Program-made: the position numbers and the translations under genes | Assembly (NCBI RefSeq): GCF_000009365.1 | Contig: NC_008260.1 | Coordinates: 2,761,001-2,825,000 of the forward strand | Origin: Alcanivorax borkumensis SK2 | GTDB lineage: Bacteria; Pseudomonadota; Gammaproteobacteria; Pseudomonadales; Alcanivoracaceae | Reading direction: 5' to 3' | Length of the DNA stretch: 64,000 bases | Shown here: piece after piece, positions 3,335 through 49,408 of the stretch | How positions within the stretch are numbered: the first letter of the stretch is position 1 | How the letters are laid out: each line of letters begins with the position of its first letter | Notes under the pieces: model-generated | What the model was told of the DNA's origin: nothing | Seen by the model: the letters and a program-made list of their open reading frames with translations, nothing else | The model's database searches: none

Positions 3335-4570
3335 GTGCGCGAGATCATTCTGATCCAGGTATCTGGTAATGACCGGCCGGGTTTGACCGCCGCCTTCACC
3401 GGCATTCTTGCCCGTTATCGGCTCAACATTCTGGATATCGGCCAGGCCGTCATCCACGACACCTTGTCGCTGGGGATTTTGGTGGAAACGCCTCAGGATG
3501 CTGACTCTTCATCAGTCCTCAAGGATCTGCTTTTCGAGGCGCACAAGCTGAATATCAATGTGCGCTTCCGGCCCATCGACGAGGACCGCTACGAAGAGTG
3601 GGTCGCAGGCCAAGGCAAGGACCGCCATATCATCACCCTGCTAGCGCGCAAGATCACCGCCGAGCAACTAGCCGATGTCACCACTACCGTGGCCGACAAT
3701 GGACTCAACATTGATAGTATAGCTAGGCTATCTGGACGTGTTCACCTAGAAGGGGAAGCCCTTAACGAGGACAACCGCGCCTGCATTGAAATTTCCGTGC
3801 GCGGCGAACCCCAGAACGGTGAGGCTATGCGTGCAGCCTTCCTGAGCATTGCCAACGAACGCAACTTGGATATCGCTTTCCAGCGCGACAGTGCCTACCG
3901 GCGCAACCGGCGCTTGGTGGTATTCGATATGGATTCCACCCTGATTCGCTCCGAAGTGATCGACGAACTGGCGACAGAAGCCGGCGTCGGCAAACAAGTG
4001 GCCGAGATTACCGAGCAGGCCATGCGCGGCGAGCTAGACTTTAATGAGAGCTTTAAAGCTCGCGTCGCCCTGCTTAAAGGCTTGGACGAAGGCGCCTTGG
4101 AACGAGTGCGTGAACGCATCCAGCTCACCGAAGGTGCTGAACGGTTAATCTCTACACTACGCGCCCTAGGCTACCGAACCGCCATCCTTTCCGGCGGTTT
4201 CACTTGGTTTGGGCAATGGCTACAAGAACTATTGGGGATTGATTATATCCACGCCAACGAGCTGGAAATCGAAAACGGCCAGGTCACGGGTCGGGTGGTA
4301 GGGCAGATCGTCAACGGCCAGCGCAAGGCGGAACTGTTAAGAGGTATCGCGGCTCAAGAAGGTATTAGCCTGGAACAGGTTATCGCCGTAGGTGATGGTG
4401 CCAACGACCTACCCATGCTTGGTGAAGCAGGCCTGGGTATTGCTTTTCGCGCCAAGCCCTTGGTCAAACAGAATGCGGAACAGGCCATTTCCACCCTAGG
4501 TCTGGACGGCATTCTTTATTTAATCGGGGTACGCGACAAGGACCAAGCGGAACTATTGAAGGGTAACTGA
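3335..4570 (+). CDS. serB: Phosphoserine phosphatase SerB
   Basis: SerB removes phosphate from L-phosphoserine, the last step of serine synthesis. The 411-residue product has two ACT-like regulatory segments (about 1-85 and 97-180) and a C-terminal HAD phosphatase domain. HAD motif I is FDMDST with D198 as nucleophile and D200 as acid/base, motif II is SGG at 286-288, and motif IV is GDGAND at 353-358. The double-ACT architecture is the long form found in Pseudomonas. The start is GTG at 3335, preceded by GGGAG. A strong hairpin terminator follows at 4622. fimX converges on it from the other strand. Confidence 0.97.
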   Translation: MREIILIQVSGNDRPGLTAAFTGILARYRLNILDIGQAVIHDTLSLGILVETPQDADSSSVLKDLLFEAHKLNINVRFRPIDEDRYEEWVAGQGKDRHIITLLARKITAEQLADVTTTVADNGLNIDSIARLSGRVHLEGEALNEDNRACIEISVRGEPQNGEAMRAAFLSIANERNLDIAFQRDSAYRRNRRLVVFDMDSTLIRSEVIDELATEAGVGKQVAEITEQAMRGELDFNESFKARVALLKGLDEGALERVRERIQLTEGAERLISTLRALGYRTAILSGGFTWFGQWLQELLGIDYIHANELEIENGQVTGRVVGQIVNGQRKAELLRGIAAQEGISLEQVIAVGDGANDLPMLGEAGLGIAFRAKPLVKQNAEQAISTLGLDGILYLIGVRDKDQAELLKGN

Positions 4571-4621
4571 GAATAGCTGAAACTCGATCGCGCTCGCCAG
4601 CTTAGGCCTGTGACTATAAGT

Positions 4622-4660
4622 GTAAGAGGCCGCGCCCATGTTTTGGGCGCGGCCTCTTAC
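4622..4660. terminator. Bidirectional terminator between serB and fimX
   Basis: A perfect 17-bp inverted repeat (4622-4638 and 4644-4660) with a 5-base loop and GC-rich core lies between the two convergent genes. The outer arms are A/T-rich, so it can end transcription from both sides. Confidence 0.85.
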
Positions 4661-4709
4661 GTTGCACAATCGTCTTAGCGTTTTTCACACGTTATCCGCT
4701 ATCAATACA

Positions 4710-34285: not shown

Positions 34286-35333
34286 ATGAAACGCCGTGAA
34301 CTTCTAATCGCGATGGCCACCCTGGCCGCCAGTGGCTGGCTGCTAAGGCCGAGCAATCAGGGCCAACCCCACGGCGATTACTTTCAAACCATCAACGACT
34401 ACCTGCGTCGCGCCGGACCGGGCCGCCCCTTGATGCTCATCGATCGCCAACGACTGGCCGCCAACTGCAAGACACTGATGAGCATGATGCCCCGCCACTG
34501 CCAGCTTCGCATCGTGGCCAAATCCCTACCCAGCGTCCCCCTTATTCAGGAAGTAATGACCCACACCGGCAGCCGGCGGATAATGGTATTCCATCAACCT
34601 TTTATGAACGCTCTGGCCGATGCCGAACCCGGCTGTGACATGCTACTGGGTAAACCCATGCCGATTCGGGCAGCACGACGTTTCTATTCTGAGTTGAGCC
34701 ACAATGAACAGAGCCATCCCAGCCCGTTCAAACCGGACCAACAACTGCAGTGGCTGATTGATTCCTCCTCTCGCCTAGAGCAATACCTGAGCCTTGCCCG
34801 CGAGCAGCAACGACATCTCAACATCAACATTGAGATCGATGTGGGCCTGCACCGGGGCGGGCTTACCGACCCCCAGCAACTGGACGCCATGATCGCGCTG
34901 ATTGAGGCCCACCCCGAGCAGCTACGCTTTAGTGGCTTCATGGGCCACGACGCTCACGTGGGTAGACTACCCAGTTTTGTACAGAGCGCAGAAGAAGGCC
35001 ACCGGGAAACCGAGGCCCTCTACCAGCAGTATATCCACAGGTTGTACCACCTGAATCCGACCTATCGAAAACAAGACCTGTGCTTTAACGGTGCCGGCAG
35101 CCCAACGCTAGCGCTCTATGACGACAGCACCGTGGTCAACGAACTCAGTGCCGGCTCCTGCCTAGTCAAAGCCAGCGACTTCGATCTGCCACTACTGCAA
35201 CGCTTCCAACCCGCGGCCTTTATTGCCGCCCCGGTGATCAAGCAACTGAATGGCCTCGCCCTGCCCGGCCCACTACCACTGGGCGAACTCTGGCAAAGCT
35301 GGGACACCAATCGCCGGCAAAGCTATTTTATTT
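34286..35333 (+). pseudogene. Fold-III PLP enzyme (D-threonine aldolase/alanine racemase-N-like), 5' part, interrupted
   Basis: The first 349 codons of a 431-codon gene are here; the last 82 codons (codon 350 split) are at 48945-49192 beyond the transposon. PLP would bind K79 in RIVAKSLP, and EIDVGLHRGG near 190 is typical of the D-threonine aldolase/DSD1 group of fold-III PLP enzymes. A hydrophobic N-terminus with RR at 3-4 suggests export, perhaps Tat. As it stands, translation runs 7 codons into the insertion and stops at 35356, losing the conserved C-terminal domain, so the product is likely inactive. It is the partner gene of the preceding oxidase. Confidence 0.9.
35326..35333. repeat. 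8-bp target-site duplication, left copy (TTTTATTT)
   Basis: The octamer directly abuts the left inverted repeat at 35334. The same octamer directly abuts the right inverted repeat at 48937-48944. Confidence 0.93.
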
Positions 35334-35391
35334 GGGTATACGGATTTAATGGTTGATGGGGCACCTTCACCCCACCAACCTGATACCACCC

Positions 35392-36675
35392 TCAGATGGT
35401 TGATAGATCGACCCCGTAGTTGAGTTCCTCTGCGAAGTCCGGCAGTCCGTAACCGATGGTGTAGAACGGAGAGACCTTCGCAGTCGGGGCCTTCTTCTTG
35501 TGCTTCGTGGTGTAGAGCATTCGTGCCCGCATCACCTCGAACGAGTAACCACGCCCTTCACGGTTCTTGTCCTTGGCCAGTCGGTTGATGGACTCCGTGT
35601 AAGCGTTGGTGACGGGCATGTCCGTCTCGAAGTAGGTCATGATCTCTTCGCGCCAGTTGCCCACTGCCCTGACCAGATCGCTCCAGACTTCCTTCTGGCC
35701 CTTTGGAATGGTGGCTATCCAGTCATCCAGGGCGGCTTCTGCCTGTGGCCGGGTGGTGGCGTTCCAGATGCCGTAGAAGCGTTCCTTGTGCTCGTAGGCG
35801 GCCAGCAGTTGCGGGAATGCGCCTGTCCAGGTCTCCATGATGAGTCGCTCCCGGTCTGAGACTTCGTGAGCGCGTTTCAGCAGGATTTTCCGGTCTCCTT
35901 TGAGGGTTCGGCTCTGGGAGGGTTTCAGCTCCTTTCTGAGGCCCTTGCGCACCTTCTCCAAGGCATCGTTGGCCATGCGCACCACATGGAACTTATCGAC
36001 CACGATACGGGCCTGTGGCAGCACCGCCTTGACCGCTGCCCGGTAGGGGTTCCACATGTCCATGCTGACGATCTCGACCTTCTGCCGGTCTTTCAGCTTC
36101 ATCAGGTAGTTGGTCACCACGTCCTGACGGCGGGTGGCCAGCAGGTCGAGCAGGGTTCGCTCCTCGATGTTGGTCAGGATGCAGCGGTAGCGCTTGTTCA
36201 GGTACAGCTCGTCGATGCCCAGAATGCGGGGCGTCTCGAAGCGGTGCCAGCGCCCCAGAAACTCGGCGCGGGCGTTGAAGATGTCACGTACCGTCTTCTC
36301 GTCCAAGCCGGTCTGTGCCGCCACAAAGGTGTAGGGGTGGTTGAAGGATTCCTTCTCCACGTATTCATGCAGCCGCAGCGTCATGCGGAAGCCGTCCACC
36401 ATCTCCGGTAGCTGGGGCCTGAAGGTGGTCTTGCAGGCCCGGCAGGTGTACCGGCGGCGGACCACCCAGAGGGTGACCCGCTTGCCGTGGATGGGCAGAT
36501 CACGATAGGGAACATCACGCTTGCCGAACCGCACGAACTCACCCTGCACGCCGCATTCCTCGCAGGCGATGGGATCGGGCGCGTCCACCTGGAAGTGCAT
36601 TTCGTCGTCGGTGGATTTGCAGCCCAGCACCTGGTACTCAGGCAGGTGCAGGATGTTGTCGGGCATTTCGGTCAT
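35392..36675 (-). CDS. ISL3-family transposase, copy 1
   Basis: The 427-residue DDE transposase has an N-terminal zinc-finger-like set C38/C41 and C78/C81 and a helix-turn-helix region near 115-135. The likely catalytic residues are D155 (GIDE), D206 (SMDMWNPY) and E361 (AYTESINR). Compared with copy 2 it lacks two residues near the C-terminus (a 6-base in-frame deletion, FYTIG against FYKKTIG) and differs at several other positions. It lies at the left end of the element, transcribed outward, with dmeR divergent from it across 140 bp that hold metal-sensor operators. Confidence 0.95.
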   Translation of the reverse strand: MTEMPDNILHLPEYQVLGCKSTDDEMHFQVDAPDPIACEECGVQGEFVRFGKRDVPYRDLPIHGKRVTLWVVRRRYTCRACKTTFRPQLPEMVDGFRMTLRLHEYVEKESFNHPYTFVAAQTGLDEKTVRDIFNARAEFLGRWHRFETPRILGIDELYLNKRYRCILTNIEERTLLDLLATRRQDVVTNYLMKLKDRQKVEIVSMDMWNPYRAAVKAVLPQARIVVDKFHVVRMANDALEKVRKGLRKELKPSQSRTLKGDRKILLKRAHEVSDRERLIMETWTGAFPQLLAAYEHKERFYGIWNATTRPQAEAALDDWIATIPKGQKEVWSDLVRAVGNWREEIMTYFETDMPVTNAYTESINRLAKDKNREGRGYSFEVMRARMLYTTKHKKKAPTAKVSPFYTIGYGLPDFAEELNYGVDLSTI

Positions 36676-36748
36676 GCGGCGTGCTCCTTACGGCTGGCGA
36701 GTGTCACGTTGGTGAGCTTCACCTACCTCTCCTCTCTTGCAAACAAGC

Positions 36749-36786
36749 ATACTACCCCCTAGTATTTATATACTACCCTCCAGTAT
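36749..36786. promoter_or_regulatory. Tandem DmeR/RcnR-type operators, copy 1
   Basis: Read on the minus strand the two sites are TACTAGGGGGTAGTA and TACTGGAGGGTAGTA, 21 bases apart. Both fit the TACT-G-tract-N-AGTA operator class of RcnR/DmeR/InrS-type sensors. They lie between the divergent transposase and dmeR genes, so they could control both. Confidence 0.75.
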
Positions 36787-36815
36787 AGTTTTTGGGCCAC
36801 TAAAGAGACGACTGC

Positions 36816-37085
36816 ATGCACACGATCAAAGACAAAGCGAAGCTATTAACCCGCGTTCGGCGCATTCAGGGGCAGACGGCCGCACTGGAAAGGCAGCTTG
36901 ACGAGGAGGGCGACTGCACGGCCGTGCTGCAACAGATCGCCGCGATTCGTGGGGCGGTGAATGGACTGATGGCAGCCATCATTGAGGGGCACTTGACTGA
37001 TCACGTCGTCAGGGAACCCGAGTTGGAGCAGCGGCAACAAGACTTGGAAGCGGTGCTGCAGGTCATCAAGTCCTACCTCAAGTAG
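36816..37085 (+). CDS. dmeR: RcnR/DmeR-type (CsoR family) metal-sensing repressor, copy 1
   Basis: This family forms all-helical tetramers that release DNA when metal binds. The 89-residue product has the Ni/Co-sensor ligand set of RcnR: H2, C34, H59 and H63, within blocks nearly identical to E. coli RcnR (AVLQQIAAIRGAVNGLM). Two matching G-tract operators lie just upstream, and a DmeF-type exporter follows 180 bases downstream. I infer a Co/Ni-responsive repressor of the exporter. The protein sequence is identical in copy 2. Confidence 0.92.
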   Translation: MHTIKDKAKLLTRVRRIQGQTAALERQLDEEGDCTAVLQQIAAIRGAVNGLMAAIIEGHLTDHVVREPELEQRQQDLEAVLQVIKSYLK

Positions 37086-37265
37086 AACATCACGAGCTAC
37101 AGCGTGGGTACCCTAGCTGTAAGAGGCGAACTTTGGCAGTGATTTAATATCCGCGCCCCTGAAGTTCTTGCGGAACCGGAGCTGTTAGCAGGGCTTCGCC
37201 ATCAATCGCCACCACTTTCATTGGTCTTGCTGACCATAATTTTTATCAACTCGGAGTATTACAGT

Positions 37266-38222
<957 letters not shown>

Positions 38223-38263
38223 GCTGATTGAGCGGGCTGGGCCGAAATAGTCGGTTTTGGTAC

Positions 38264-38302
38264 GGGCGAGGGAGTTGCTCTGCATTCAGCTTGGCCTCGC
38301 CC
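38264..38302 (+). terminator. Hairpin after dmeF copy 1, possible terminator
   Basis: An 8-bp stem GGGCGAGG/CCTCGCCC (38264-38271 with 38295-38302) lies downstream of dmeF. No T run follows. The rest of 38223-38433 holds only an internal ATCAACCA repeat at 38378-38395. Confidence 0.35.
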
Positions 38303-38433
38303 TCTCTCCAAGCCATGTAAGTGTCATTGTCCATACACGTTCCAGGCTTTGTAGGTACCTTAATGGCCTGAGTGACATATCAACCAAGGAATCCGATGAA
38401 GTGGGGAGTTGTTACCTCCCCATGATACCCAGA

Positions 38434-38458
38434 GATCAACCAGATATTCCGGATACCC
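38434..38458. repeat. Right inverted repeat of ISL3 copy 1
   Basis: The 25 bases match the reverse complement of the left end (35334-35358) at 19 positions and end in CCGGATACCC. A related subterminal repeat lies 56 bases inside, at 38378-38395. Confidence 0.85.
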
Positions 38459-38584
38459 AATTTTTACTCGGACTTTTCTTGCATCTGCTTCTCTGAAAAA
38501 TCACTTTATCTCAGCAACTTACAAAAATCTGTAAGCCATATCCTACATATTCAACTTGCGCGCTGGTGAAAAACGGGAAGAATT

Positions 38585-38605
38585 CCCCGGCCTTAAAAGC
38601 CGGGG
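38585..38605 (-). terminator. Probable terminator of the czc operon
   Basis: A 7-bp stem CCCCGGC/GCCGGGG lies 12 bases after the czcA stop codon (minus strand), followed by AATTCTTCC. The T tract is weak. Confidence 0.5.
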
Positions 38606-38616
38606 AGCCCGCATTA

Positions 38617-41600
38617 TCAGCGTAATTCGGCGACTTCCTCCCTAGAAAACACCCCATAAAGACTCGGCAACACCAACAAGGTCAACGCCGTGGCCGACAC
38701 CAACCCACCCACAATCACCACCGCCAGTGGCCGCTGCACCTCACTGCCTACTCCCGTCGCCAGCAACATGGGAATCAGCCCCAGCATGGAAGTGAGCGCG
38801 GTCATCAGTACCGGTCGCAGGCGTGACACCGCGCCTTCAAAGATCGCCGTCTCCAGTGCTTCGCCATCGCGCAGGCGGTGATTGATGGCTTCCACCATGA
38901 CTACCCCATTGAGCACCGCCACGCCGAACAGGGTGATAAAGCCCACGGAGCTAGGCACGGACAGGTACTGGCCGCTGAGGGCTAATGCGAGGATGCCGCC
39001 GATGAGGGCCAGGGGGACGTTGACCAGAATGAGAGCAGCCTGGGCCACGGAGCCGAAGGCGAAGTAGAGCAGCAGGGCAATCAGGCCCACAGCCACGGGT
39101 ACCACCATGGCCAGACGTTGCTGGGCGCGCTGCTGGTTTTCGTACTGGCCGCCGATGTCCACGCTGTAGCCGGCGGGCAGGTCGACTTCGCTGTCGATGG
39201 CCTGCTGGATGTCGGCCACCACTGAGCCCATGTCACGACCGGCCACATTGGCCTGGATAACCACGCGGCGTTGCACGTCGTCGCGGCTGATCTGGGGCGG
39301 GCCGGAGACCAGGGAGACGTCCGCCACATCCATGAGCCGCACCCAGGCACCGTCGGCGGCTTTGAGGCGCAGGTTGCGAATGGCTTCGGCGTCCTTGCGG
39401 GCGTTCTGCTCCAGGCGCACGTAGATGTCGTAGCGCTCGTTGCCATTGATCACCTGCCCGGCGCTGCCGCCGCCCAGGCCATTGCTGACCAGATCCATGA
39501 CCTGATCCACGCTCAATCCATAGCGGCTGAGGGCGTTGCGGTCCGGAGTGACGACCAGTTGGGCTTCACCGGCGATCTGTTCCAGTTGCACGTCGGTGGC
39601 GCCGTCGACTTCCTTGACGGCCTGGGTGATGGCTTCGCCTTTTTCCTGCAGCACGTCGAGATCCGGGCCAAACAGTTTGATGGCGAGCTGGGCTTTTACA
39701 CCAGAAAGTAATTCGTCCACGCGCATGGCGATGGGCTGGGAAAAGTTGAGTAGCAGGCCGGGATGTTTTTCCAGTTTCTGCTGAATTTTTTCCTGTAGCT
39801 CCAGGCGATTGCTGGCGCTCTCCCATTCATCTACAGGCTTGAGACCGATATAGATTTCCACGTTGCTCACCGGTTCCGGGTCGCCACCGATTTCGGCACG
39901 CCCTACCCGGCTAAGCGCGTAGGTGACTTCCGGGAAGGTCATGATTTCCTTCTCCAGTTTTTGCCCCACGTCCAACGCAGTATCGAGGCTGGAGGATGGG
40001 GCCAGCGTTACGCGTAACGCCAACGTCCCCTCTTCCAGCACCGGCACAAATTCAGTGCCAATAAACGGCGTGGTTGCCAGTGCCAGGGCAAACAAACCCA
40101 CCGCGCCACCGACCACCACTTTACGGGCCTGCATGGCTTTGCCCAGCAGGGTGCGATAGCGGGCTTCCAGCCAGCGCATCAGCTTGTTGGGCTTTTCTTC
40201 CACGCCATTGCGGAACAGGAACCCGGCCAGTGCCGGCACCACGATCAGCGCCACCAGTACGGCGGCGGTCATGGCGAGCATGATGCTGATGGCCATGGGC
40301 ACGAACATCTTGGCTTCCACCCCCTCGAAGGCGAACAGGGGCAGGAACACCACCAGGATAATGCTGGCGGCGAAGAACACCGGCCGCGCCACTTCCTGGG
40401 CTGCGTCTTTTACCCTCAAGGCGATGCCGCCTTGTTGATCGTGACCGCCCTCTTTCTGGCTCAGGTGTTTAAAGATGTTTTCCACCATCACCACGGAGCC
40501 ATCCACCAGCATGCCGATGGCCACGGCCAGGCCACCCAGCGACATCAGGTTGGCGGACATGCCCAGGCTGGCCATCGCCAACAAGGCCAGGCCAATGGAA
40601 AGCGGAATGGACAGCAAAACCAAGGCCGTGGCACGCAGGTTCATCAGGAACAGGGCCAGCACGATGACGATAAAGACGAAGGCCAGCAGCAAGGCGGTGA
40701 CCACTGTGCTGACGGCTTTTTCCACCAGATCTGCCTGGTCGTAGAACACCTCAAACTGCACACCGTCCGGCAGGGCCTGCTGGATGCGCGCTTCGCGTTC
40801 CTTGATGCCATCGATGGTGGCCTTTGTATTGGCGCCCATGCGTTTGAGCACGATGCCGGCTACCACTTCGCCGAGGGCTTCCGGTTCGCCGCTGGCATCA
40901 CGGCGGGTCATGGTGAGGGCGCCCTGTCGAATTTCGCCGCCGAACTCCACCTTGGCCACATCACTGACGCGCACCTGGGTGCCGTCCACTTCCTTGAGGG
41001 GAATGGCGGCAATGTCACCGAGCCCTTGCTCGCCGCTGCCGACCCAGCCCATGCCGCGGATGACCAATTGCTCGGCACCGCGATCCAGATACCAGCCGCC
41101 GGCGTTGCGGTTATTGGCGGCGATGGCATCCATGACCTGTTGCAGGCTCAGGTCGTAGGCCAGCAAACGGGTAGGGTTCACGTTGACCTGATACTGGCGC
41201 ACTTCACCGCCATAGCTGAGCACATCGGTGACGCCGCCCACGGGCATGAGTAGCAGTTTCACCACCCAGTCGTTGAGGCTGCGCAGTTGCATGGCATCCA
41301 CATTGGAGCCCGGCTCGGCGGTGAGCAGGTATTGATACACCTGACCCAGGCCGGAGGTGTTGGGGCCCATTTCCGGGGTGCCGACGCCGTCGGGAATATC
41401 TTCCCGTGCGGCCTGCAATCGCTCGAACACCAGCTGGCGGGCGAAATAGATATCGGTGCCTTCCTCGAACACCACGGTGACGATGGACAGGCCGGTCTTG
41501 GAGATGGAACGCACCTCGGCCACCTGCGGCAATGCATACATCACTGCCTCGATGGGATAGGTGATCAGCTGCTCCACTTCTTCCGCTGCCAGGCCTTCGG

Positions 41601-41757
41601 CTTCGGTGTTCACCTGTACCTGGACGTTGGTCACGTCCGGGAAGGCATCCAGTTTCAGGTTGGGCAATTGCCAGCCGATCACGCCAATGGTGATGACCAG
41701 TAACAGCAACACAATGAGGCGGTTGTTCACCGCCCAATCGACAAGTCGATTAAACAT
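38617..41757 (-). CDS. czcA: Heavy-metal RND efflux pump, inner-membrane subunit (CzcA-like)
   Basis: The 1046-residue proton-driven pump has the usual RND plan: one N-terminal membrane helix, a large periplasmic porter domain, helices 2-6, a second porter domain and helices 8-12. The proton-relay segment is AIGMLVDGSVVMVEN at 413-427 with D419. CzcA itself has DFG...DGAVV here, so this belongs to a different heavy-metal RND subgroup and the exact metal cannot be assigned. It is the last gene of czcI-like/czcC/czcB/czcA on the minus strand, 11 bases after czcB, inside the composite transposon. Confidence 0.93.
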   Translation of the reverse strand: MFNRLVDWAVNNRLIVLLLLVITIGVIGWQLPNLKLDAFPDVTNVQVQVNTEAEGLAAEEVEQLITYPIEAVMYALPQVAEVRSISKTGLSIVTVVFEEGTDIYFARQLVFERLQAAREDIPDGVGTPEMGPNTSGLGQVYQYLLTAEPGSNVDAMQLRSLNDWVVKLLLMPVGGVTDVLSYGGEVRQYQVNVNPTRLLAYDLSLQQVMDAIAANNRNAGGWYLDRGAEQLVIRGMGWVGSGEQGLGDIAAIPLKEVDGTQVRVSDVAKVEFGGEIRQGALTMTRRDASGEPEALGEVVAGIVLKRMGANTKATIDGIKEREARIQQALPDGVQFEVFYDQADLVEKAVSTVVTALLLAFVFIVIVLALFLMNLRATALVLLSIPLSIGLALLAMASLGMSANLMSLGGLAVAIGMLVDGSVVMVENIFKHLSQKEGGHDQQGGIALRVKDAAQEVARPVFFAASIILVVFLPLFAFEGVEAKMFVPMAISIMLAMTAAVLVALIVVPALAGFLFRNGVEEKPNKLMRWLEARYRTLLGKAMQARKVVVGGAVGLFALALATTPFIGTEFVPVLEEGTLALRVTLAPSSSLDTALDVGQKLEKEIMTFPEVTYALSRVGRAEIGGDPEPVSNVEIYIGLKPVDEWESASNRLELQEKIQQKLEKHPGLLLNFSQPIAMRVDELLSGVKAQLAIKLFGPDLDVLQEKGEAITQAVKEVDGATDVQLEQIAGEAQLVVTPDRNALSRYGLSVDQVMDLVSNGLGGGSAGQVINGNERYDIYVRLEQNARKDAEAIRNLRLKAADGAWVRLMDVADVSLVSGPPQISRDDVQRRVVIQANVAGRDMGSVVADIQQAIDSEVDLPAGYSVDIGGQYENQQRAQQRLAMVVPVAVGLIALLLYFAFGSVAQAALILVNVPLALIGGILALALSGQYLSVPSSVGFITLFGVAVLNGVVMVEAINHRLRDGEALETAIFEGAVSRLRPVLMTALTSMLGLIPMLLATGVGSEVQRPLAVVIVGGLVSATALTLLVLPSLYGVFSREEVAELR

Positions 41758-41768
41758 GACGGTGATCC

Positions 41769-42995
41769 TCAGTGATTGTGAATATCGAAACCGGACTTGG
41801 CCATTTCACTGGCCAGAAAAAACGCCCCGCGAGTGACCACGCGCGTACCCGGTTCAAGACCCGTAACGATGCGGCGGTTTTCCAGCTGGCCATTGAGTTG
41901 GATTTCCACGGGTTTGTAGTGGCCAGGCTCTTCTTCCACGAACAGTTGCCAATCGCCATCGGCGCTACGGGTGAGCGCCTCTTCCGGCACGGTGAGGGTG
42001 TTCTCCGGTGCCGCCAACGCCAGTGCCACATCGGCAAACATGCCGGGGTGCAACAGATGGCCCGCATTGGGAATCGCCACTCGCACCGCAAGGGTACGGG
42101 TGACGGGATTGAGGCGATGGCCAGACTGGATCACCTTGCCGTCCACGGATGTGCCACCCACGATGACGCGGGCCGGGGTGCCGGTGCTGATCTGCAAACC
42201 GGGGCTCGGCGGCAGGGCGGCTTCGGCCCACAGTTCGGATTCATCCACCAGCGTGACCAGGGCGCTGCCCGCGGTTAACCATTGCCCTTGCTGGAAGGCA
42301 TCTTCCAGCACCAGGCCATCGTCCGGCGCTGTGAGGGTATAAACCCCTTTTTCATTTTTTCCGGCTTCGATATCAGCGATGGCGCTGTTACTGAGGCCAT
42401 AACCCTTGGCCCGGGCTCGCAGGGACTGGTACTGACTTTGCGCGTCCAGATAGCGCTGGTTGCCCACGGTACGCCGGCCGAGGTTTTTAACCCGCCGCCA
42501 GCCGTCCGCTGCCACTTGCAGATCACTTTGTAACTGCGCCATGGCCGGGCTGAACAGGGTGGCAATGGCATCCCCTTTTTCCATGTGCTGGCCAAGCGTG
42601 GCACTGCGAGACTGCACCTGGGAATCGATACGCACCGGCACCACCCAGGTGCGGTACTGGTTGCTGATAATTTCCGCCGGCACGGTCAGGGTCCGGGTAG
42701 CGTCGGCATCAGGCTGCAGGGTAATGACCTGCAGGTTAAGCGTCTTTTGTTGTTCTGCGGTCAGCTCCAGTGCCGCTTCTTCACTATGGGACGCTGCGCT
42801 CCCAACCTCCTTCCCATGAGCGTGCTCATCATGGTCACCGCTATTATCCGGAGCAGCCTGTTGTGCATGCTGTTCGGCTTCGTTGCTTTCGTTGTGGGCA
42901 TGGTCATGATTTTCATCCGCCCAGCCCGGGTTCGCCAGGGTTGCCAGCAAGAAGATGGCCAGAGGCGTCTTTTGAAATGTCATTTTCGGTTTCAT
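41769..42995 (-). CDS. czcB: RND periplasmic adaptor (membrane fusion) subunit, CzcB-like
   Basis: The 408-residue product has a signal peptide (1-26), then a His/Asp/Glu-rich mature N-terminus (about 28-72, HDHAHNE and HDEHAHG) likely to bind metal, followed by barrel-sandwich, hairpin and beta-barrel parts. The C-terminus ends in DIHNH. It links the pump CzcA to the outer-membrane CzcC. A 192-bp gap with a REP-type palindrome separates it from czcC. Confidence 0.92.
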   Translation of the reverse strand: MKPKMTFQKTPLAIFLLATLANPGWADENHDHAHNESNEAEQHAQQAAPDNSGDHDEHAHGKEVGSAASHSEEAALELTAEQQKTLNLQVITLQPDADATRTLTVPAEIISNQYRTWVVPVRIDSQVQSRSATLGQHMEKGDAIATLFSPAMAQLQSDLQVAADGWRRVKNLGRRTVGNQRYLDAQSQYQSLRARAKGYGLSNSAIADIEAGKNEKGVYTLTAPDDGLVLEDAFQQGQWLTAGSALVTLVDESELWAEAALPPSPGLQISTGTPARVIVGGTSVDGKVIQSGHRLNPVTRTLAVRVAIPNAGHLLHPGMFADVALALAAPENTLTVPEEALTRSADGDWQLFVEEEPGHYKPVEIQLNGQLENRRIVTGLEPGTRVVTRGAFFLASEMAKSGFDIHNH

Positions 42996-43013
42996 AAAAA
43001 ATTTTCCATTTTT

Positions 43014-43094
43014 TGTAGGAGCGCCGTTCAGGGCGCGAAGAAGTTGGCACCGCGTGTCGCAGAAACCATTCGCGCCTCAAGTGGCACTCCTACA
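43014..43094. repeat. REP-type palindromic pair between czcB and czcC
   Basis: A REP-like sequence TGTAGGAGCGCC...GGGCGCGAA (43014-43039) is followed by its inverted relative ending GGCACTCCTACA (43069-43094). The TGTAGGAGCG head is typical of Pseudomonas-type REPs. A third partial copy (GGTTCCTACAG) lies near 43172. Confidence 0.75.
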
Positions 43095-43187
43095 GTAATT
43101 TTTCGCTTAATTTCTCGTTTCAAGCGGTGTTATTCGCTTCGCTCACCCTGCGGCTGTTACCTCGCAAGCTCGGTTCCTACAGAACAA

Positions 43188-44429
43188 TCATTCGTTGGCC
43201 AACTGGTTCAGCCAGTCGTTGAGCTGGGCGCTTTCATAGAGCCACTGCACCCAGGCCTGCTGCATGGCATCGCGCAGGGCGATGCCAGCCAGCCGGGTAT
43301 CGAGCCGCTGATTCAAGGCCTGCAGATAGTTCTGGGTGGTGAGTTCGCCCTGCTGCCAGACGCGCTTGAGCAAGGTGTCGCTGCGCGCCAGGCTATCGCC
43401 GGTGAGTTGTTGCCAGGTTTCCCAGCGCTCGCGCCGCTGCTGGTAATCGCTCAACGCTCCGTCCAGCCGGGCCTGAATGTCGTTGCGGGTTTTCTCCAGC
43501 AGTGCACGCCGCTCTTCACTGTCCGCCAGGGCAGCTTCATAGCCTGGCTTGCCGGTATTGAAGAACTTCAATGGCAGGCTGAAATCCACGCCCCACAAAT
43601 TTTCGCCACCTTCCTGGCCCACGCGCAGGCCCAGGGTCGGGTCGGTGTTGCGTTGTTTGTCTGCCACCGATACCCCTCGCTCAGCCAGCGCCAGTTGCTG
43701 CTCGGCCAACTGCAAATCGAAGCTGGTGGGGAGCCGTTGCACGACACCATGGGTGAGTGACGGGGCCTGCCAACGGTCCGCCGCCGGCAAGGCCACCGCG
43801 GGTTGTTGGCTGGCCAGTTGCTGGCGCAATGTGGTGGCAGCACGGGTGGCGGCACTTTCCGCATCCGCCAGGGCCTGCTGGGCCTGCCCCAGTGACAGGT
43901 AGGCCAATTGCGCATCCACCTGCCCCACATCCCCCGCCTGTTCGCGGCGGCGAATCAGGTCGGTGAGATCGCGCAGCTGCTGTTCCTGCTCACGGGCGGC
44001 CGCCAATTGCTCGCGGGCGGCGGCATGGGCCACCAGCGCATTGAGGCTGTCCGCCAGCAGGCGGGCGCGGGCCTTGTCGCCACGCAGCTGCGCCAGCTGA
44101 TCCCGTACGGCCACGGCATCACGGCGGGCGCGGGCCTTGCCGGACCAGTCCAGCGTCTGGCTGAGGCCCACGGTCTGGGTGATATCGAGGCTGTCTTCGT
44201 AGTCGATATTCAATGAAGGGTTATAAAGCGGCTGCGATAAAGCCCGGCTTTGCGCCAGCAACCGTTCCTGCTCCGCCTGGATGGCCCGGCTGGCCGGTAG
44301 CTGGCTGACCTGGCGCTGCACCCATTGCGCCCACTGCGCGGGCGAGGAAGAAGAATCGGCCGACGCGCTGGCATACGCGCACACGGCCAGTAACAGTGCG
44401 GCCATGCGCACTGGGGTCTGGATTCCCAT
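43188..44429 (-). CDS. czcC: Outer-membrane efflux subunit, CzcC-like (TolC family)
   Basis: The 413-residue product has a signal peptide (about 1-24, ending ASASA) and the two-fold repeated long helices of TolC-type proteins (OEP domains about 60-230 and 245-405). It completes the tripartite pump with CzcB and CzcA. It is shorter than TolC but usual for CzcC-type proteins. It precedes czcB on the same strand. Confidence 0.9.
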   Translation of the reverse strand: MGIQTPVRMAALLLAVCAYASASADSSSSPAQWAQWVQRQVSQLPASRAIQAEQERLLAQSRALSQPLYNPSLNIDYEDSLDITQTVGLSQTLDWSGKARARRDAVAVRDQLAQLRGDKARARLLADSLNALVAHAAAREQLAAAREQEQQLRDLTDLIRRREQAGDVGQVDAQLAYLSLGQAQQALADAESAATRAATTLRQQLASQQPAVALPAADRWQAPSLTHGVVQRLPTSFDLQLAEQQLALAERGVSVADKQRNTDPTLGLRVGQEGGENLWGVDFSLPLKFFNTGKPGYEAALADSEERRALLEKTRNDIQARLDGALSDYQQRRERWETWQQLTGDSLARSDTLLKRVWQQGELTTQNYLQALNQRLDTRLAGIALRDAMQQAWVQWLYESAQLNDWLNQLANE

Positions 44430-44539
44430 GGGGAAACTCCTGATGTCTCAAAACGTTACGTCAAGAACAATGCCGACGCTCGCCACGGCGCACATTCACC
44501 GATGGACAAGGCAACAAAGTCGGGGAAACGAAGAAACGA

Positions 44540-44839
44540 TCAGGCTATAGGAGGACGGAAAGGGTTATCGGCCGGGGCATCCGGCAGGAAGGGGCGCAAC
44601 GCCATTTGACCTGCAGAGGGCGGGGCCAGGCGCAGCGGCTCACAATCGGTGGAGGCCATGAAACCATGGCATTGACAGCAATGGTCGCCGCCTTTGTCCA
44701 GCACATCCGCACTGACCAGATCCTGCTGGACCTGTTCCAGCGAGGCAGCTGCGCCACCATCGTGCTGGTGATGCATGGCATCCAGCACCAGTACATGAGT
44801 ACTGATGACAAGCAGCAATGTGTAGACCAGTGCTTTCAT
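44540..44839 (-). CDS. Small secreted Cys/His-rich protein, CzcI-like
   Basis: The 99-residue product has a signal peptide-like start (1-20) and then metal-ligand-rich stretches HHQHD (23-27) and HCCQCH (53-58) plus C66. Small proteins of this kind, CzcI or DUF2946-like, often open czc operons. It is the first gene of the minus-strand czc run, 110 bases before czcC. I infer a periplasmic metal-binding or regulatory role. No two-component or MerR regulator lies nearby. Confidence 0.65.
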   Translation of the reverse strand: MKALVYTLLLVISTHVLVLDAMHHQHDGGAAASLEQVQQDLVSADVLDKGGDHCCQCHGFMASTDCEPLRLAPPSAGQMALRPFLPDAPADNPFRPPIA

Positions 44840-45055
44840 GGGATGCCCGCTAACGAGGGAAGAGTCGCAACCTTGCGATACCCATAGACCGCCGTCAAGA
44901 CAATCGGTTCCCCGTCACCTGTGGGTACGATCCGGTCATCCCGTTTTCCGAATCGGCATCGTATAGTGTCGGCTCCGTTTCGCCGGAATGAAAAAGGGGG
45001 TATACGGATTTAATGGTTGATGGGGCACCTTCACCCCACCAACCTGATACCACCC

Positions 45056-46345
45056 TCAGATGGTTGATAGATCGACCCCGTAGTTGAGTTCCTCTGCAAA
45101 GTCCGGCAGTCCGTAACCGATGGTTTTCTTGTAGAACGGAGAGACCTTCGCAGTCGGAGCCTTCTTCTTGTGCTTCGTGGTGTAGAGCATTCGTGCCCGC
45201 ATCACCTCGAACGAGTAACCACGCCCTTCACGGTTCTTGTCCTTGGCCAGTCGGTTGATGGACTCCGTGTAAGCGTTGGTGACGGGCATGTCCGTCTCGA
45301 AGTAGGTCATGATCTCTTCGTGCCAGTTGCCCACCGCCCTGACCAAATCACTCCAGACTTCCTTCTGGCCCTTCGGGATGGTGGCTATCCAGTCGTCCAG
45401 GGCGGCTTCTGCCTGGGGCCGTGTAGTGGCGTCCCAGATGCCGTAAAAGCGTTCCTTGTGCTCGTAGGCGGCCAGCAGTTGCGGGAATGCGCCTGTCCAG
45501 GTCTCCATGATGAGGCGCTCCCGGTCTGAGACTTCGTGAGCGCGTTTCAGCAGGATTTTCCGGTCTCCCTTGAGGGTTCGGCTTTGGGAAGGTTTTAGCT
45601 CCTTTCTGAGGCCCTTGCGCACCTTCTCCAGGGCATCGTTGGCCATACGCACCAAATGGAATTTATCGACCACGATGCGGGCCTGTGACAGCACAGTCTT
45701 GACCGCCGTCCGGTAAGGGTTCCACATGTCCATGCTGACGATCTCGACCTTCTGTAGGTCTTTCAGCTTCATCAGGTAGTTGGTCACCACGTCCTGACGG
45801 CGTGTGGCCAGCAGGTCAAGCAGGGTTCGCTCCTCGATGTTGGTCAGAATGCAACGGTAACGCTTGTTCAGGTACAGCTCGTCGATGCCCAGAATTCGGG
45901 GCGTCTCGAAGCGGTGCCAGCGCCCCAGGAACTCGGCGCGGGCGTTGAAGATGTCGCGTACCGTCTTCTCGTCCAGGCCGGTCTGTGCCGCCACGAAGGT
46001 GTAGGGGTGGTTGAAGGATTCCTTCTCCACGTATTCATGCAGCCGCAGCGTCATGCGGAAGCCGTCCACCATCTCCGGTAGCTGGGGCCTGAATGTGGTC
46101 TTGCAGGCCCGGCAGGTATACCGGCGGCGGACCACCCAGAGGGTGACCCGCTTGCCGTGGATGGGCAGATCACGATAGGGAACATCACGCTTGCCGAACC
46201 GCACGAACTCACCCTGCACGCCGCATTCCTCGCAGGCGATGGGATCGGGCGCGTCCACCTGGAAGTGCATTTCGTCGTCGGTGGATTTGCAGCCCAGCAC
46301 CTGGTACTCAGGCAGGTGCAGGATGTTGTCGGGCATTTCGGTCAT
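45056..46345 (-). CDS. ISL3-family transposase, copy 2
   Basis: The 429-residue product is nearly the same as copy 1, with the same zinc-finger-like cysteines and D155, D206 and E361. It keeps FYKKTIGYG near the C-terminus, which copy 1 has shortened by two residues. Other differences include L197 for R, T213/T217 for A, and D for N at 305. Both copies look intact, so either could drive movement of the whole unit. Confidence 0.95.
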   Translation of the reverse strand: MTEMPDNILHLPEYQVLGCKSTDDEMHFQVDAPDPIACEECGVQGEFVRFGKRDVPYRDLPIHGKRVTLWVVRRRYTCRACKTTFRPQLPEMVDGFRMTLRLHEYVEKESFNHPYTFVAAQTGLDEKTVRDIFNARAEFLGRWHRFETPRILGIDELYLNKRYRCILTNIEERTLLDLLATRRQDVVTNYLMKLKDLQKVEIVSMDMWNPYRTAVKTVLSQARIVVDKFHLVRMANDALEKVRKGLRKELKPSQSRTLKGDRKILLKRAHEVSDRERLIMETWTGAFPQLLAAYEHKERFYGIWDATTRPQAEAALDDWIATIPKGQKEVWSDLVRAVGNWHEEIMTYFETDMPVTNAYTESINRLAKDKNREGRGYSFEVMRARMLYTTKHKKKAPTAKVSPFYKKTIGYGLPDFAEELNYGVDLSTI

Positions 46346-46418
46346 GCGGCGTGCTCCTTACGGCTGGCGAGTGTCACGTTGGTGAGCTTCACCTACCTCT
46401 CCTCTCTTGCAAACAAGC

Positions 46419-46456
46419 ATACTACCCCCTAGTATTTATATACTACCCTCCAGTAT
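46419..46456. promoter_or_regulatory. Tandem DmeR/RcnR-type operators, copy 2
   Basis: These are identical to the pair at 36749-36786, again between divergent transposase and dmeR. Confidence 0.75.
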
Positions 46457-46485
46457 AGTTTTTGGGCCACTAAAGAGACGACTGC

Positions 46486-46755
46486 ATGCACACGATCAAA
46501 GACAAAGCGAAGCTATTAACCCGCGTTCGGCGCATTCAGGGGCAGACGGCCGCACTGGAAAGGCAGCTTGACGAGGAGGGCGACTGCACGGCCGTGCTGC
46601 AACAGATCGCCGCGATTCGTGGGGCGGTGAATGGACTGATGGCAGCCATCATTGAGGGGCACTTGACTGATCACGTCGTCAGGGAACCCGAGTTGGAGCA
46701 GCGGCAACAAGACTTGGAAGCGGTGCTGCAGGTCATCAAGTCCTACCTCAAGTAG
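46486..46755 (+). CDS. dmeR: RcnR/DmeR-type metal-sensing repressor, copy 2
   Basis: The 89 residues are identical to copy 1, and the surrounding DNA is identical too. Ligands H2, C34, H59 and H63 are present. With two identical repressors and operators in the cell, both dmeF genes should answer to the same metal signal. Confidence 0.92.
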   Translation: MHTIKDKAKLLTRVRRIQGQTAALERQLDEEGDCTAVLQQIAAIRGAVNGLMAAIIEGHLTDHVVREPELEQRQQDLEAVLQVIKSYLK

Positions 46756-46935
46756 AACATCACGAGCTACAGCGTGGGTACCCTAGCTGTAAGAGGCGAA
46801 CTTTGGCAGTGATTTAATATCCGCTCCCCTGAAGTTCTTGCGGAACCGGATCTGTTAGCAGGACTACGCCATCAATCGCCACCACTTTCATTGGCCTTGC
46901 TGACCATAATTTTTATCAACTCGGAGTATTACAGT

Positions 46936-47880
<945 letters not shown>

Positions 47881-47885
47881 AGAGA

Positions 47886-47919
47886 TTTCGTGGCTCCAGC
47901 CCATTGTGGAGCCTCGAAA
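47886..47919 (-). terminator. Hairpin between dmeF copy 2 and mntP
   Basis: The stem TTTCG-x-GGCTCCA pairs with TGGAGCC-x-CGAAA around an 8-base loop. It lies between two convergent genes; the T run is on the mntP side only. Confidence 0.5.
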
Positions 47920-47925
47920 AAAAAC

Positions 47926-48486
47926 TTACAGTTGACCGTATAAAATCCATGCGCCCACTGCAATCAGCGTTAGTCCGCCAAAAATTTCTGCTCTGTGTCC
48001 CATGACCGACCCTATAGCACGCCCTAGCATTATGCCAATAGTCACCATGAGGGTCGTTGCAAGCCCAATCAAAGCTGAAGCTATCCATATGTTGACATTG
48101 ATGAAGGCCAGACTAACACCCACCGCCATAGCATCAATACTGGTACTAAATGCCGTTAGACAGGTCCGGAGCAAAGACATTTTTTGGGCCTTATGCTCCT
48201 CACTACCCCCATCAGGCCTTGTACCCTCATAAATCATGTGAAGACCCAGGACCGTCAGGAGTGAAAAAGCAATCCAGTGATCCCAGGCCTCCACATAGCT
48301 TGCTGCTGATTTTCCAATTAGCCAGCCTACAAGCGGCGTAATTGCTTCGATAGAACCAAAGATGATTCCTATTCTGAAAGCTTCAGTGAGGCGTGGTTTT
48401 TTAAGGATTGCGCCTTTACCAATCGCAGCAGCGAAAGCATCTGTGGACATGGCAAAGGCAAGCAAAAGAAGGGCTATTGGGTTCAT
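47926..48486 (-). CDS. mntP: Manganese efflux pump MntP
   Basis: The 186-residue inner-membrane exporter has six hydrophobic segments in two related halves, each with an acidic motif: D16 in MSTDAFAAA and D118 in TSIDAMAVG, as in E. coli MntP. It removes excess Mn2+. A yybP-ykoY riboswitch and a sigma70-like promoter lie upstream on the same strand, so it should be turned on by Mn2+. It is found only in copy 2 of the ISL3 element, which makes it mobile cargo. Confidence 0.95.
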
Positions 48487-48498
48487 CTAACTGACTCC

Positions 48499-48540
48499 GG
48501 TCGGGCATATCGAGTCCACGATATATCCACACGCCCGACC
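48499..48540 (-). promoter_or_regulatory. Riboswitch expression-platform hairpin before mntP
   Basis: An 8-bp stem GGTCGGGC/GCCCGACC lies between the aptamer and the mntP ribosome site; GGAG (48495-48498) touches its base. This fits control of translation start. Confidence 0.6.
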
Positions 48541-48544
48541 TTAG

Positions 48545-48660
48545 GCATGGATATATCGATGGTCTCGCCAACCGAGAGGTGTTCGCACCATGGCATCTGG
48601 CCAATTATGTTGACACGAACTCTTCCGAGTTTCGGAAGCAGGCTACTCCCCAAAGAGGGT
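48545..48660 (-). ncRNA. yybP-ykoY manganese riboswitch
   Basis: On the minus strand the leader has the class signature GGGGAGTAGCC, then a TTCCGAAACTCGGAA stem-loop, a GTTCGTGTC/GGTGCGAAC pairing and GTTGGCGAGACC. This is the same order as in the E. coli mntP leader. It begins right after a promoter and ends about 60 bases before mntP. An apparent reading frame across it (48483-48818) is not credible as a gene. Confidence 0.88.
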
Positions 48661-48662
48661 GC

Positions 48663-48691
48663 AATATAACAACTATCCTGAACGATCACAA
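48663..48691 (-). promoter_or_regulatory. Sigma70-like promoter for the mntP riboswitch
   Basis: On the minus strand TTGTGA and TATATT are separated by 17 bases, with the riboswitch beginning about 7 bases downstream. Confidence 0.65.
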
Positions 48692-48911
48692 ATGTTTGAT
48701 AGTTGACGTGTATATTCTCTGATCTATAAAGCGCCCTAGGGTGGTGCCACGTTTGCCGGAATATGCAAACGTCCCAGCCATCATTAAATCCGCATCCATC
48801 AATCCAGGAAATCGTCATTTCCCAACTTGACAGACACCTTAATCGTATTGGGGCACATCAACCAATAAATCCGTTGAGATGAGGGATTGCGACCTCCCCA
48901 CAATACCTAGA

Positions 48912-48936
48912 GATCAACCAGATTTTCCGGTTACCC
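48912..48936. repeat. Right inverted repeat of copy 2 and of the composite transposon
   Basis: The 25 bases end in CCGGTTACCC and match the complement of the left end at 17 of 25. A subterminal relative (CATCAACCAATAAATCCG) lies 56 bases inside, at 48856-48873. Nothing else is seen in 48692-48911. Confidence 0.85.
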
Positions 48937-48944
48937 TTTTATTT
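48937..48944. repeat. 8-bp target-site duplication, right copy (TTTTATTT)
   Basis: It abuts the right inverted repeat and equals 35326-35333. Confidence 0.93.
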
Positions 48945-49192
48945 ACGGGGGTTACTGGAAAGCCGAGCCGATCTCTCCGCCTGGCATCCAGGCCAACCCG
49001 CTATACGGCGCCAGCAGTAACCAGATGATGTACAACGCCAGCGAAGACACCGCACTACAGGTCGACGATCAATTATTCCTCCGCCCCACACAAAGCGAAT
49101 TTGTATTGCTGCAATTCGGAGACTTGGCGGTATGGGAAAACGGCGCCGTTAGCGACTGGTGGCCCCCGCTTCCCCAAGCCAACGGGGCCTGA
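48945..49192 (+). pseudogene. 3' part of the interrupted fold-III PLP enzyme gene
   Basis: Joined to 35333, the frame continues through a split Tyr codon into YGGYWKAEPISPPG, LYGASSNQ and DDQLFLRPTQSE and stops at 49190-49192. These blocks resemble the C-terminal domain of D-threonine aldolase/DSD1-like proteins. The fragment has no start of its own. It completes a 431-residue protein with the 5' part at 34286-35333. Confidence 0.9.
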
Positions 49193-49408
49193 TGGCCAGG
49201 CCGGTCTCCATACTGCAAAGTGAACAAGAACAGCTGAAGAGACCGTCCACGGCGTGCTGCCTCCTTATGATCCTCCCCCACCCCTGTGTGACAGCTTACC
49301 CCCCCCCCCCACCCATAGCATGCTTTAACTGAACTTTTACAAACACCGGGAACGATCCCCCCTTATCCGCCACTAACTTAGTGAGACATCTACCAAGGAG
49401 GATGATTC

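What the first reader, a model, noticed from the sequence alone, without database searches (positions are those of the whole stretch)
35326..49192. Composite ISL3 transposon with a provable insertion event
The octamer TTTTATTT flanks the 35334-48936 unit exactly at the two outer inverted repeats. Removing the unit and one octamer rejoins an intact 431-codon fold-III PLP gene, with a codon split across the junction read correctly. Inner ends of the two ISL3 copies show no such duplication. So the 13.6-kb block (tnp-dmeRF / czc operon / tnp-dmeRF-mntP) moved as one unit. ISL3-based composite transposons with passenger genes inside the IS copies themselves are unusual.
Basis: seen in the sequence. 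Interest (0 to 1): 0.85.

Follow-up and report, generated by a model that had tools for sequence, protein, structure and literature searches.

The report
Metal-efflux composite transposon, both ends traced
A 13.6-kb block of metal-pump genes, bounded by two slightly different jumping genes that themselves carry metal-pump genes, jumped as one piece into a gene of a marine bacterium, and relatives show both the empty landing site and the place the middle piece resembles most.

Summary
Confirmed. The unit 35334-48936 (13,603 bp) is flanked by TTTTATTT on both sides; removing it and one octamer gives an intact 431-codon PLP gene. Of 45 other Alcanivoracaceae genomes, 34 hold the uninterrupted gene; one close relative has a single TTTTATTT there, and its alignments to the two flanks overlap by exactly 8 bp.

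Two further results bear on the history. (1) The 6,539-bp interior lies uninterrupted in Alcanivorax sp. DG881, with homology ending exactly at the two inner IS ends, so both pre-insertion sites are seen. (2) The two IS are different elements, also found alone: IS1 in Halomonas (1 difference in 3,125), IS2 in Marinobacter (identical outside a 0.6-0.7-kb stretch that matches IS1).

The kind is known: the transposase arm is ~95% ISPpu12-type, and ISPpu12 composites (DEH, Tn6580a/b) are in print. New here: different passengers in each IS (dmeRF; dmeRF-mntP with a Mn2+ riboswitch), two RcnR/DmeR-like sites between tnpA and dmeR, and a pattern in which related tnpA arms are joined to four other metal-related modules (one further arm does not fit). 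Metal-controlled transposition is a testable inference, not shown.

The parts
34286..35333 (+). 5' part (with one octamer) of the interrupted fold-III PLP gene (Ala_racemase_N)
   Evidence: actual ORF runs on to 35356
35326..35333 (.). left copy of target-site duplication TTTTATTT
35334..38458 (.). IS1: ISPpu12-group ISL3 element, 3125 bp, dmeRF cargo; 1 difference from the copy on a Halomonas plasmid (L116)
35392..36675 (-). tnpA of IS1, 427 aa, DDE_Tnp_ISL3
36750..36785 (.). two RcnR/DmeR-like sites TACTN7AGTA (36750-36764, 36771-36785) between tnpA and dmeR
   Evidence: motif identity recalled, binding inferred
36816..37085 (+). dmeR of IS1, CsoR/RcnR-family metal-responsive repressor
37266..38222 (+). 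dmeF of IS1, CDF Co(II)/Ni(II) exporter, 318 aa
38459..44997 (.). interior: 6539 bp of Alcanivorax-type DNA (95.5% to DG881), bounded by AATTTTTA and GAAAAAGG
38617..41757 (-). CusA/CzcA RND pump
41769..42995 (-). RND periplasmic adaptor (czcB position)
43188..44429 (-). outer-membrane efflux protein (czcC position)
44540..44839 (-). 99-aa small His/Cys-containing ORF upstream of czcC, no Pfam or NCBIfam match
44998..48936 (.). IS2: ISPpu12-group ISL3 element, 3939 bp, dmeRF-mntP cargo; identical to a Marinobacter MAG copy (L049) except one stretch
45056..46345 (-). tnpA of IS2, 429 aa
   Evidence: 96.1% DNA identity to IS1 tnpA
46119..46824 (.). stretch of IS2 identical to IS1 (706 bp maximum; 57 of 57 informative sites IS1-like), probable gene-conversion tract over the tnpA 5' end, operators and dmeR
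46420..46455 (.). two TACTN7AGTA sites of IS2 (46420-46434, 46441-46455)
46486..46755 (+). dmeR of IS2 (protein identical to that of IS1)
46936..47880 (+). dmeF of IS2, 314 aa
47926..48486 (-). mntP manganese efflux pump
   Evidence: Pfam Mntp above cut-off; NCBIfam MntP 194.8 bits, cut-off 214
48494..48663 (-). yybP-ykoY Mn2+ riboswitch upstream of mntP (52.7 bits, gathering 45)
   Evidence: also in L049 and L115
48937..48944 (.). right copy of target-site duplication TTTTATTT
48945..49192 (+). 3' part of the interrupted PLP gene

Best explanation
This is an IS-flanked composite transposon. Two different transporter-IS of the ISPpu12 group (ISL3 family), in direct orientation, inserted independently on either side of a czcCBA operon in the chromosome of an Alcanivorax close to strain DG881. 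The transposase then used the outermost pair of ends, the left end of IS1 and the right end of IS2, as if the whole 13.6 kb were one long IS. The block entered the present lineage and inserted into a PLP-enzyme gene, duplicating TTTTATTT. Shown: target-site duplication, empty target, unoccupied donor-type sites, near-identical single IS with their own duplications elsewhere, absence of czc at the corresponding site here. Inferred: the donor lineage and transfer route, the order of events, that the stretch of IS2 identical to IS1 is a local gene conversion, and that metals control tnpA through DmeR and the two operators.
For: Outer 8-bp duplication and rejoined gene. Uninterrupted gene in 34 of 45 other family genomes. 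Single octamer and 8-bp overlap in G009. DG881 interior contiguous, homology running from base 1 to base 6539 of the interior and no further, 95.6% identity. czcB 97.5% and czcC 98.1% to DG881 (czcA 94.4%), against 75.7-90.0% for five genes or stretches around the target site and 82% beside the czc site. IS1 = L116 with 1 difference, duplication CTAAATCC; IS2 = L049 outside positions 1100-1840, duplication AAAAAAAC. Exact 8-bp duplications at 51 of 67 loci with both ends recognised, of 80 loci; A+T 80%. Published kin: DEH, Tn6580a/b.
Against: The unit was found at one place only, so repeated transposition as a unit is unproven. The interior is uneven: 87-94% to DG881 in the left 2 kb, 96-98% in the rest, so the left part is not clearly more similar than the most conserved backbone gene (90.0%), and the donor lineage is only approximately DG881. 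No intermediate (czc with a single IS) was found. 11 of 45 family genomes lack a close homologue of the target gene (7 distant matches, 4 none), so they say nothing about the empty site.
Confidence: 0.93

Rival explanations
1. Stepwise assembly: a single IS sat in the PLP gene, and a circle carrying czc plus one IS recombined into it (a translocatable-unit or Campbell-type event), giving the same outer duplication.
For: It gives the same outer octamers and inner flanks; recombination between such IS does occur (tract; mosaic L115).
Against: A single crossover between unlike IS leaves reciprocal hybrids. Here IS1 is type 1 from end to end (1 difference from L116) and IS2 is the L049 type at both ends (44, then 76 informative sites with no exception), with only an internal type-1 stretch of 57 sites. 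Pre-existing complementary hybrids could still mimic this.
Confidence: 0.05
2. Metal-licensed transposition (a reading of function, compatible with the composite history): in this IS group tnpA is placed under metal sensors, so that metal stress switches on both efflux cargo and jumping. In the window, DmeR bound at two operators would repress dmeRF and tnpA, and Co/Ni would derepress both.
For: Two TACTN7AGTA sites in the 140-bp tnpA/dmeR gap of each copy, the only 4 in the window (100 Markov-1 simulations: mean 0.2, maximum 2). Both sites are kept in L049 and L115 although the DNA there is only ~83% identical to IS1 (L049 and L115 are 95.5% alike there, so this is little more than one comparison). 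Four other modules joined to related tnpA arms each hold a regulator of a metal-sensing type of family (MerR three times, ArsR once). A paper title says TnpR of an ISPpu12 isoform regulates transposition.
Against: No binding or expression data. No promoter passing the strict sigma-70 scan in the gap. The TnpR paper was not readable. One arm (L231) lies beside transporter-like ORFs with no metal regulator recognised by eye. Passenger regulators may simply control the passengers. A cloned ISPpu12a module gave no Cd/Co/Zn resistance (PMC4447125 passages).
Confidence: 0.4
3. Assembly artefact joining repeats.
For: The two IS are 95% alike over 2.85 kb.
Against: Single 3,120,143-bp contig; the two copies differ along most of their length; each boundary is independently explained by DG881 and G009.
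Confidence: 0.01

Closest known systems
DEH transposon of Pseudomonas sp. PP3 (PMC12060670; passages seen)
   Same: Passenger DNA between two almost identical ISPpu12 copies that each carry metal-related genes (lspA, czcD, cueR) besides tnpA
   Different: Here the two IS are unlike each other, carry dmeRF or dmeRF-mntP instead of the ISPpu12 passengers, and the interior is a czc operon with a donor-like locus identified
Tn6580a/Tn6580b, 'ISPpu12-composite' transposons (PMC8239412; passages seen)
   Same: Named ISPpu12 composites
   Different: 50-55 kb antibiotic-resistance regions in ICEs of Enterobacteriaceae
ISPpu12 / ISPpu12a (ISL3 family transporter IS; PMC4133298, PMC4447125 passages)
   Same: Left end and tnpA 94.6-95.0% identical over 1349 bp to a 3372-bp element of the ISPpu12 layout (L040); 8-bp AT-rich duplications
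   Different: Long homology stops at the tnpA start codon; everything to the right, with the right end, is another module
dmeRF Co/Ni efflux operon (NCBIfam NF033827 DmeF)
   Same: DmeF 418.8 bits against cut-off 250; CsoR/RcnR-family regulator
   Different: Carried inside an IS, divergent from its transposase
   Same: ISPpu12-group tnpA; outer 8-bp duplication TTTATAAG, inner ends without
   Different: Inverted outer copies with ArsR/ArsP-type cargo, a third copy inside, RND pump and a multicopper-oxidase-like gene in the interior

Membership tests
IS-flanked composite transposon | Two IS of one family flank non-IS DNA | tested here: met
IS-flanked composite transposon | Target duplication at the outer ends only | tested here: met
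IS-flanked composite transposon | Empty target site in relatives | tested here: met
   34 of 45 genomes uninterrupted; exact octamer in 5 of 29 junctions read
IS-flanked composite transposon | Interior comes from another locus, cut at the inner IS ends | tested here: met
   DG881; donor lineage approximate
IS-flanked composite transposon | Same unit at more than one site | tested here: not met
   not found in plasmids or family; one genome per species is held, so the search is weak. This is support for mobility, not required for the structural definition
ISL3 family | DDE_Tnp_ISL3 transposase with ISL3 zinc ribbon and HTH | tested here: met
ISL3 family | 8-bp target duplication, GGGTA-type ends | tested here: met
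   that these are the family's features is recalled
ISPpu12 itself | tnpR, czcD, lspA passengers and 3372-bp length | tested here: not met
   different right module, 3125 and 3939 bp
ISPpu12 itself | ISPpu12-like left end and tnpA | tested here: met
   94.6-95.0% over 1349 bp; related plasmid hits are annotated ISPpu12
yybP-ykoY Mn2+ riboswitch | Covariance match above gathering score upstream of a Mn exporter | tested here: met
yybP-ykoY Mn2+ riboswitch | Mn2+-dependent regulation | not testable with these tools
   needs reporter assay
RcnR/DmeR-controlled promoter | TACT-N7-AGTA operators between regulator and target | tested here: met
   motif recalled from literature, not from a call
RcnR/DmeR-controlled promoter | Regulator is RcnR proper | tested here: inconclusive
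   119 bits against RcnR cut-off 138; nearest solved relatives are FrmR
RcnR/DmeR-controlled promoter | Metal-responsive binding and control of tnpA | not testable with these tools
   needs experiment

The most novel reading that the evidence does not exclude
The ISPpu12-type transposase arm is a portable engine that has been re-coupled, at or near the tnpA start codon, to different metal-sensing modules (MerR-type with czcD; mer operon with MerR; heavy-metal P-type ATPase with MerR-type; ArsR with ArsP; RcnR-type DmeR with dmeRF, with or without a Mn riboswitch-mntP unit). Each coupling would put transposition under a different metal signal, so that metal stress mobilises efflux genes, including whole neighbouring operons by composite formation.
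Probability: 0.33. Interest if true: 0.72.

Novelty: new variant of a known kind. Interest (0 to 1): 0.46.

Why it matters
Composite transposons are usually inferred from IS-cargo-IS layout. Here the landing site, a donor-like source of the cargo and free-standing forms of both IS are all visible, so the history can be read and a rival (recombination into a resident IS) can be tested and disfavoured. It also shows a Mn2+ riboswitch and a Co/Ni-type repressor-exporter pair riding inside insertion sequences of marine bacteria, and it makes 'does metal stress switch on transposition?' a directly testable question.

Tried and rejected
Rejected: recombination of a czc circle into a resident IS (mosaic pattern); movement within this chromosome (czcB/C 97-98% to DG881 against 82% beside the corresponding chromosomal site; that site has no czc DNA within the 16 kb read and the genome holds no second long copy; a different RND system, 24-26% identical in protein, lies nearby); reading of the unit as ISPpu12 itself; an assembly artefact. 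Led nowhere: exact IS1-czc junction in viral contigs, 0 matches; strict promoter scan of the tnpA/dmeR gap, 0 found. Paper searches for this unit: 'ISL3'+'dmeF'+'transposase' 0 papers; 'Alcanivorax'+'ISL3' 1 paper, not opened; two Alcanivorax borkumensis mobile-element searches, of whose hits I saw listings and passages of PMC12128166 only: none seen to describe it. Passages on ISPpu12 also seen in PMC10871549, PMC7093585, PMC6723655, PMC11915867, PMC5034289: none describes a dmeRF form. Rows left out of counts: one search's duplication count covers 67 of 80 loci where both ends were recognised; of the 16 without an exact duplication one (L035) has 7 of 8 bases and 15 have two or more mismatches. 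Many of the 80 loci come from one genome (Pseudomonas bharatica), so they are not independent; several order-level loci repeat contigs.
Full report
OBSERVATION. TTTTATTT stands at 35326-35333 and 48937-48944, directly outside GGGTATACGG and CCGGTTACCC. Joining the flanks with one octamer gives a 431-aa protein; the TAC codon is split T|AC by the junction. The inner IS flanks AATTTTTA and GAAAAAGG are not duplicated. The contig is a single 3,120,143-bp genome, 100% complete in the table (from recall this is the size of Alcanivorax borkumensis SK2).

EMPTY SITE. A search of 46 family genomes, the own one included, with the rejoined protein gave full-length (at least 1-428 of 431), stop-free matches in 34 of the 45 others; 7 had only distant 26-28% matches and 4 none. 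The junction DNA was read in 29 of the 34: uninterrupted, coding Tyr-Phe-Ile/Val-Tyr, 5 of 29 with the exact octamer. In G009 one locus aligns to 34421-35333 and to 48937-49203, the two alignments overlapping by exactly 8 bp, with neighbouring stretches collinear on both sides; DG881 (G007) is likewise collinear, with variant codons at the octamer.

DONOR-LIKE SITE. The interior 38459-44997 matches G007, whose 3,800,634-bp contig has the length of NZ_DS989915.1, Alcanivorax sp. DG881. The match covers base 1 to base 6539 in one piece at 95.6% and stops at both ends where the IS begin...AACGGG|AATTTTTACTC on the left and ...GAATGAAAAAGG|AAAACC on the right; nothing else in the 16.5-kb DG881 stretch matches the window. 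Thus both target sites are seen unoccupied. Identity over 500-bp windows runs from 87% at the left to 98% at the right. czcA, czcB and czcC are 94.4%, 97.5% and 98.1% identical to DG881; five genes or stretches around the insertion site are 75.7-90.0%, and the region beside the czc site is 82%. I read this as horizontal acquisition from a DG881-like lineage; the left 2 kb (87-94%) is less clear. In G009 czc has the same right-hand neighbours as in DG881. Here the region right of that place is kept at 82%, but the 16 kb read around it holds no czc DNA and no homologue of the neighbouring DG881 gene at L164 11535-11957; the left-hand DG881 neighbours match only in pieces of about 100 bp; and the genome has no other long match to the interior, the eight further matches being 50-86 bp (40 of 78 candidates scored).

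THE TWO IS. IS1 (35334-38458) holds tnpA, dmeR, dmeF. IS2 (44998-48936) holds these plus mntP with a yybP-ykoY Mn2+ riboswitch at 48494-48663. Each type exists alone elsewhere: IS1 on Halomonas plasmid NZ_CP130702 (1 difference in 3,125; duplication CTAAATCC) and, with a 42-bp longer repeat, in Zhongshania (7 of 8 duplication bases match); IS2 in a Marinobacter MAG (duplication AAAAAAAC), and a 95% relative on a Methylophaga plasmid, where no duplication was found. The riboswitch is present in both IS2-type relatives. At 177 sites where IS1 and the Marinobacter copy differ, IS2 reads 44 Marinobacter-like, then 57 IS1-like, then 76 Marinobacter-like, with no exception. So IS2 is a Marinobacter-type element with one internal stretch (584-706 bp; window 46119-46824 at most) of IS1 type covering the tnpA 5' end, the operators and dmeR. 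This is best read as gene conversion between the two copies; since L115 is also mosaic, an older mosaic cannot be excluded. Recombination of a circle into a resident IS would predict reciprocal hybrids and is disfavoured.

FAMILY. The left end plus tnpA is 94.6-95.0% identical over 1349 bp to a 3372-bp element with the ISPpu12 layout (L040), and long homology then stops at the tnpA start codon (ISPpu12a is given as 3372 bp in PMC4447125). Of the 80 loci fetched with this transposase, 77 carry at least part of an ISPpu12-type right arm (some cut by contig ends; in L106 only 29 bp beyond the arm); the others are L035 (IS1 type), L049 (IS2 type) and L114. L068 and L073 hold in addition an ArsR/ArsP-type copy whose arm homology stops at 1240, inside tnpA. 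Right modules other than dmeRF: a MerR-type regulator divergent from czcD-lspA-tnpA (gaps 3 and 21 bp); an ArsR-like regulator divergent from arsP-tnpA (gap 12 bp); a MerR-type regulator next to tnpA (57 bp), with merT and a mercuric-reductase-like gene on the other strand, in a more distant arm (75-79%); and a heavy-metal P-type ATPase and MerR-type regulator with an MFS-like ORF upstream of tnpA. One further arm (L231, 88.5%) lies beside transporter-like ORFs; no right end was found and no metal regulator was seen by eye (its ORFs were not searched), so it does not fit the pattern. Gene names such as tnpR, merA and cueR follow published ISPpu12 annotation or domain hits, not tests.

REGULATION (inferred). 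In the 140-bp gap between tnpA and dmeR are two TACTN7AGTA sites per copy; these four are the only ones in the 64-kb window (100 Markov-1 simulations: mean 0.2, maximum 2). Both are kept in L049 and L115 although the DNA there is ~83% identical to IS1; those two are 95.5% alike there, so this is little more than one independent comparison. In two relatives of the dmeR region on Halomonas plasmids, without the tnpA arm, one exact site remains. The motif is recalled as that of RcnR/DmeR. DmeR matches the RcnR model at 119 bits, below its cut-off of 138, and its nearest solved relatives are FrmR proteins, so the sensed ligand is not certain; the DmeF neighbour is a firm match. No promoter passed the strict scan. 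That TnpR of an ISPpu12 isoform regulates transposition is known to me here only as a title in reference lists. PMC3812183 states that circular intermediates were shown for the ISL3-like ISPst9 (passage).

KNOWN KIND. DEH is described as dehI and its regulator flanked by two almost identical ISPpu12 (PMC12060670). Tn6580a/b are called ISPpu12-composite transposons (PMC8239412). Transporter IS are a recognised class (PMC9330008). I add G730: three ArsR/ArsP-type copies, the outermost two inverted and flanked by TTTATAAG on both outer sides, none of the three with its own duplication, enclosing an RND pump and a multicopper-oxidase-like gene.

VERDICT. The event is unusually well documented; the kind is known; the open and testable point is metal control of transposition. 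On checking, the number of other modules was mended from five to four, and the odds of the novel case lowered slightly for that.

Noticed in passing
window 38459-38576: The first ~118 bp of the interior recur, 81-92% identical and on both strands, at many places in Alcanivorax genomes (over 30 listed matches), including three partial copies elsewhere in this genome: a dispersed repeat.
   Followed up: no
L233+L234 (G730:C1:3659618-3681510): A 21.9-kb composite of ISPpu12-group IS with inverted outer copies, outer duplication TTTATAAG, and a third IS copy inside without its own duplication.
   Followed up: partly
L206, L207, L232: A ~5.1-kb ISL3 element with tnpA 75-79% like the window's DNA, next to a merR-type gene, with merT and a mercuric-reductase-like gene on the other strand, in three genomes (Pfam run on L207 only).
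   Followed up: partly
L181 (Halomonas sp. HAL1 plasmid) 3974-5673: dmeRF module with an ISPpu12-group-like right end but no transposase arm: a relic or a precursor of the cargo module.
   Followed up: partly
window 37734-37769 (dmeF of IS1): GGGCAT tandem repeat coding a His-Gly stretch; its length differs between IS copies (42 bp longer in Zhongshania L035, shorter in IS2).
   Followed up: partly
window 35392-36675 and 45056-46345: IS1 tnpA lacks two codons relative to IS2 and the ISPpu12-type copy in L040 (427 against 429 aa); a tnpA of the same length is in the Halomonas copy that has a perfect duplication.
   Followed up: no
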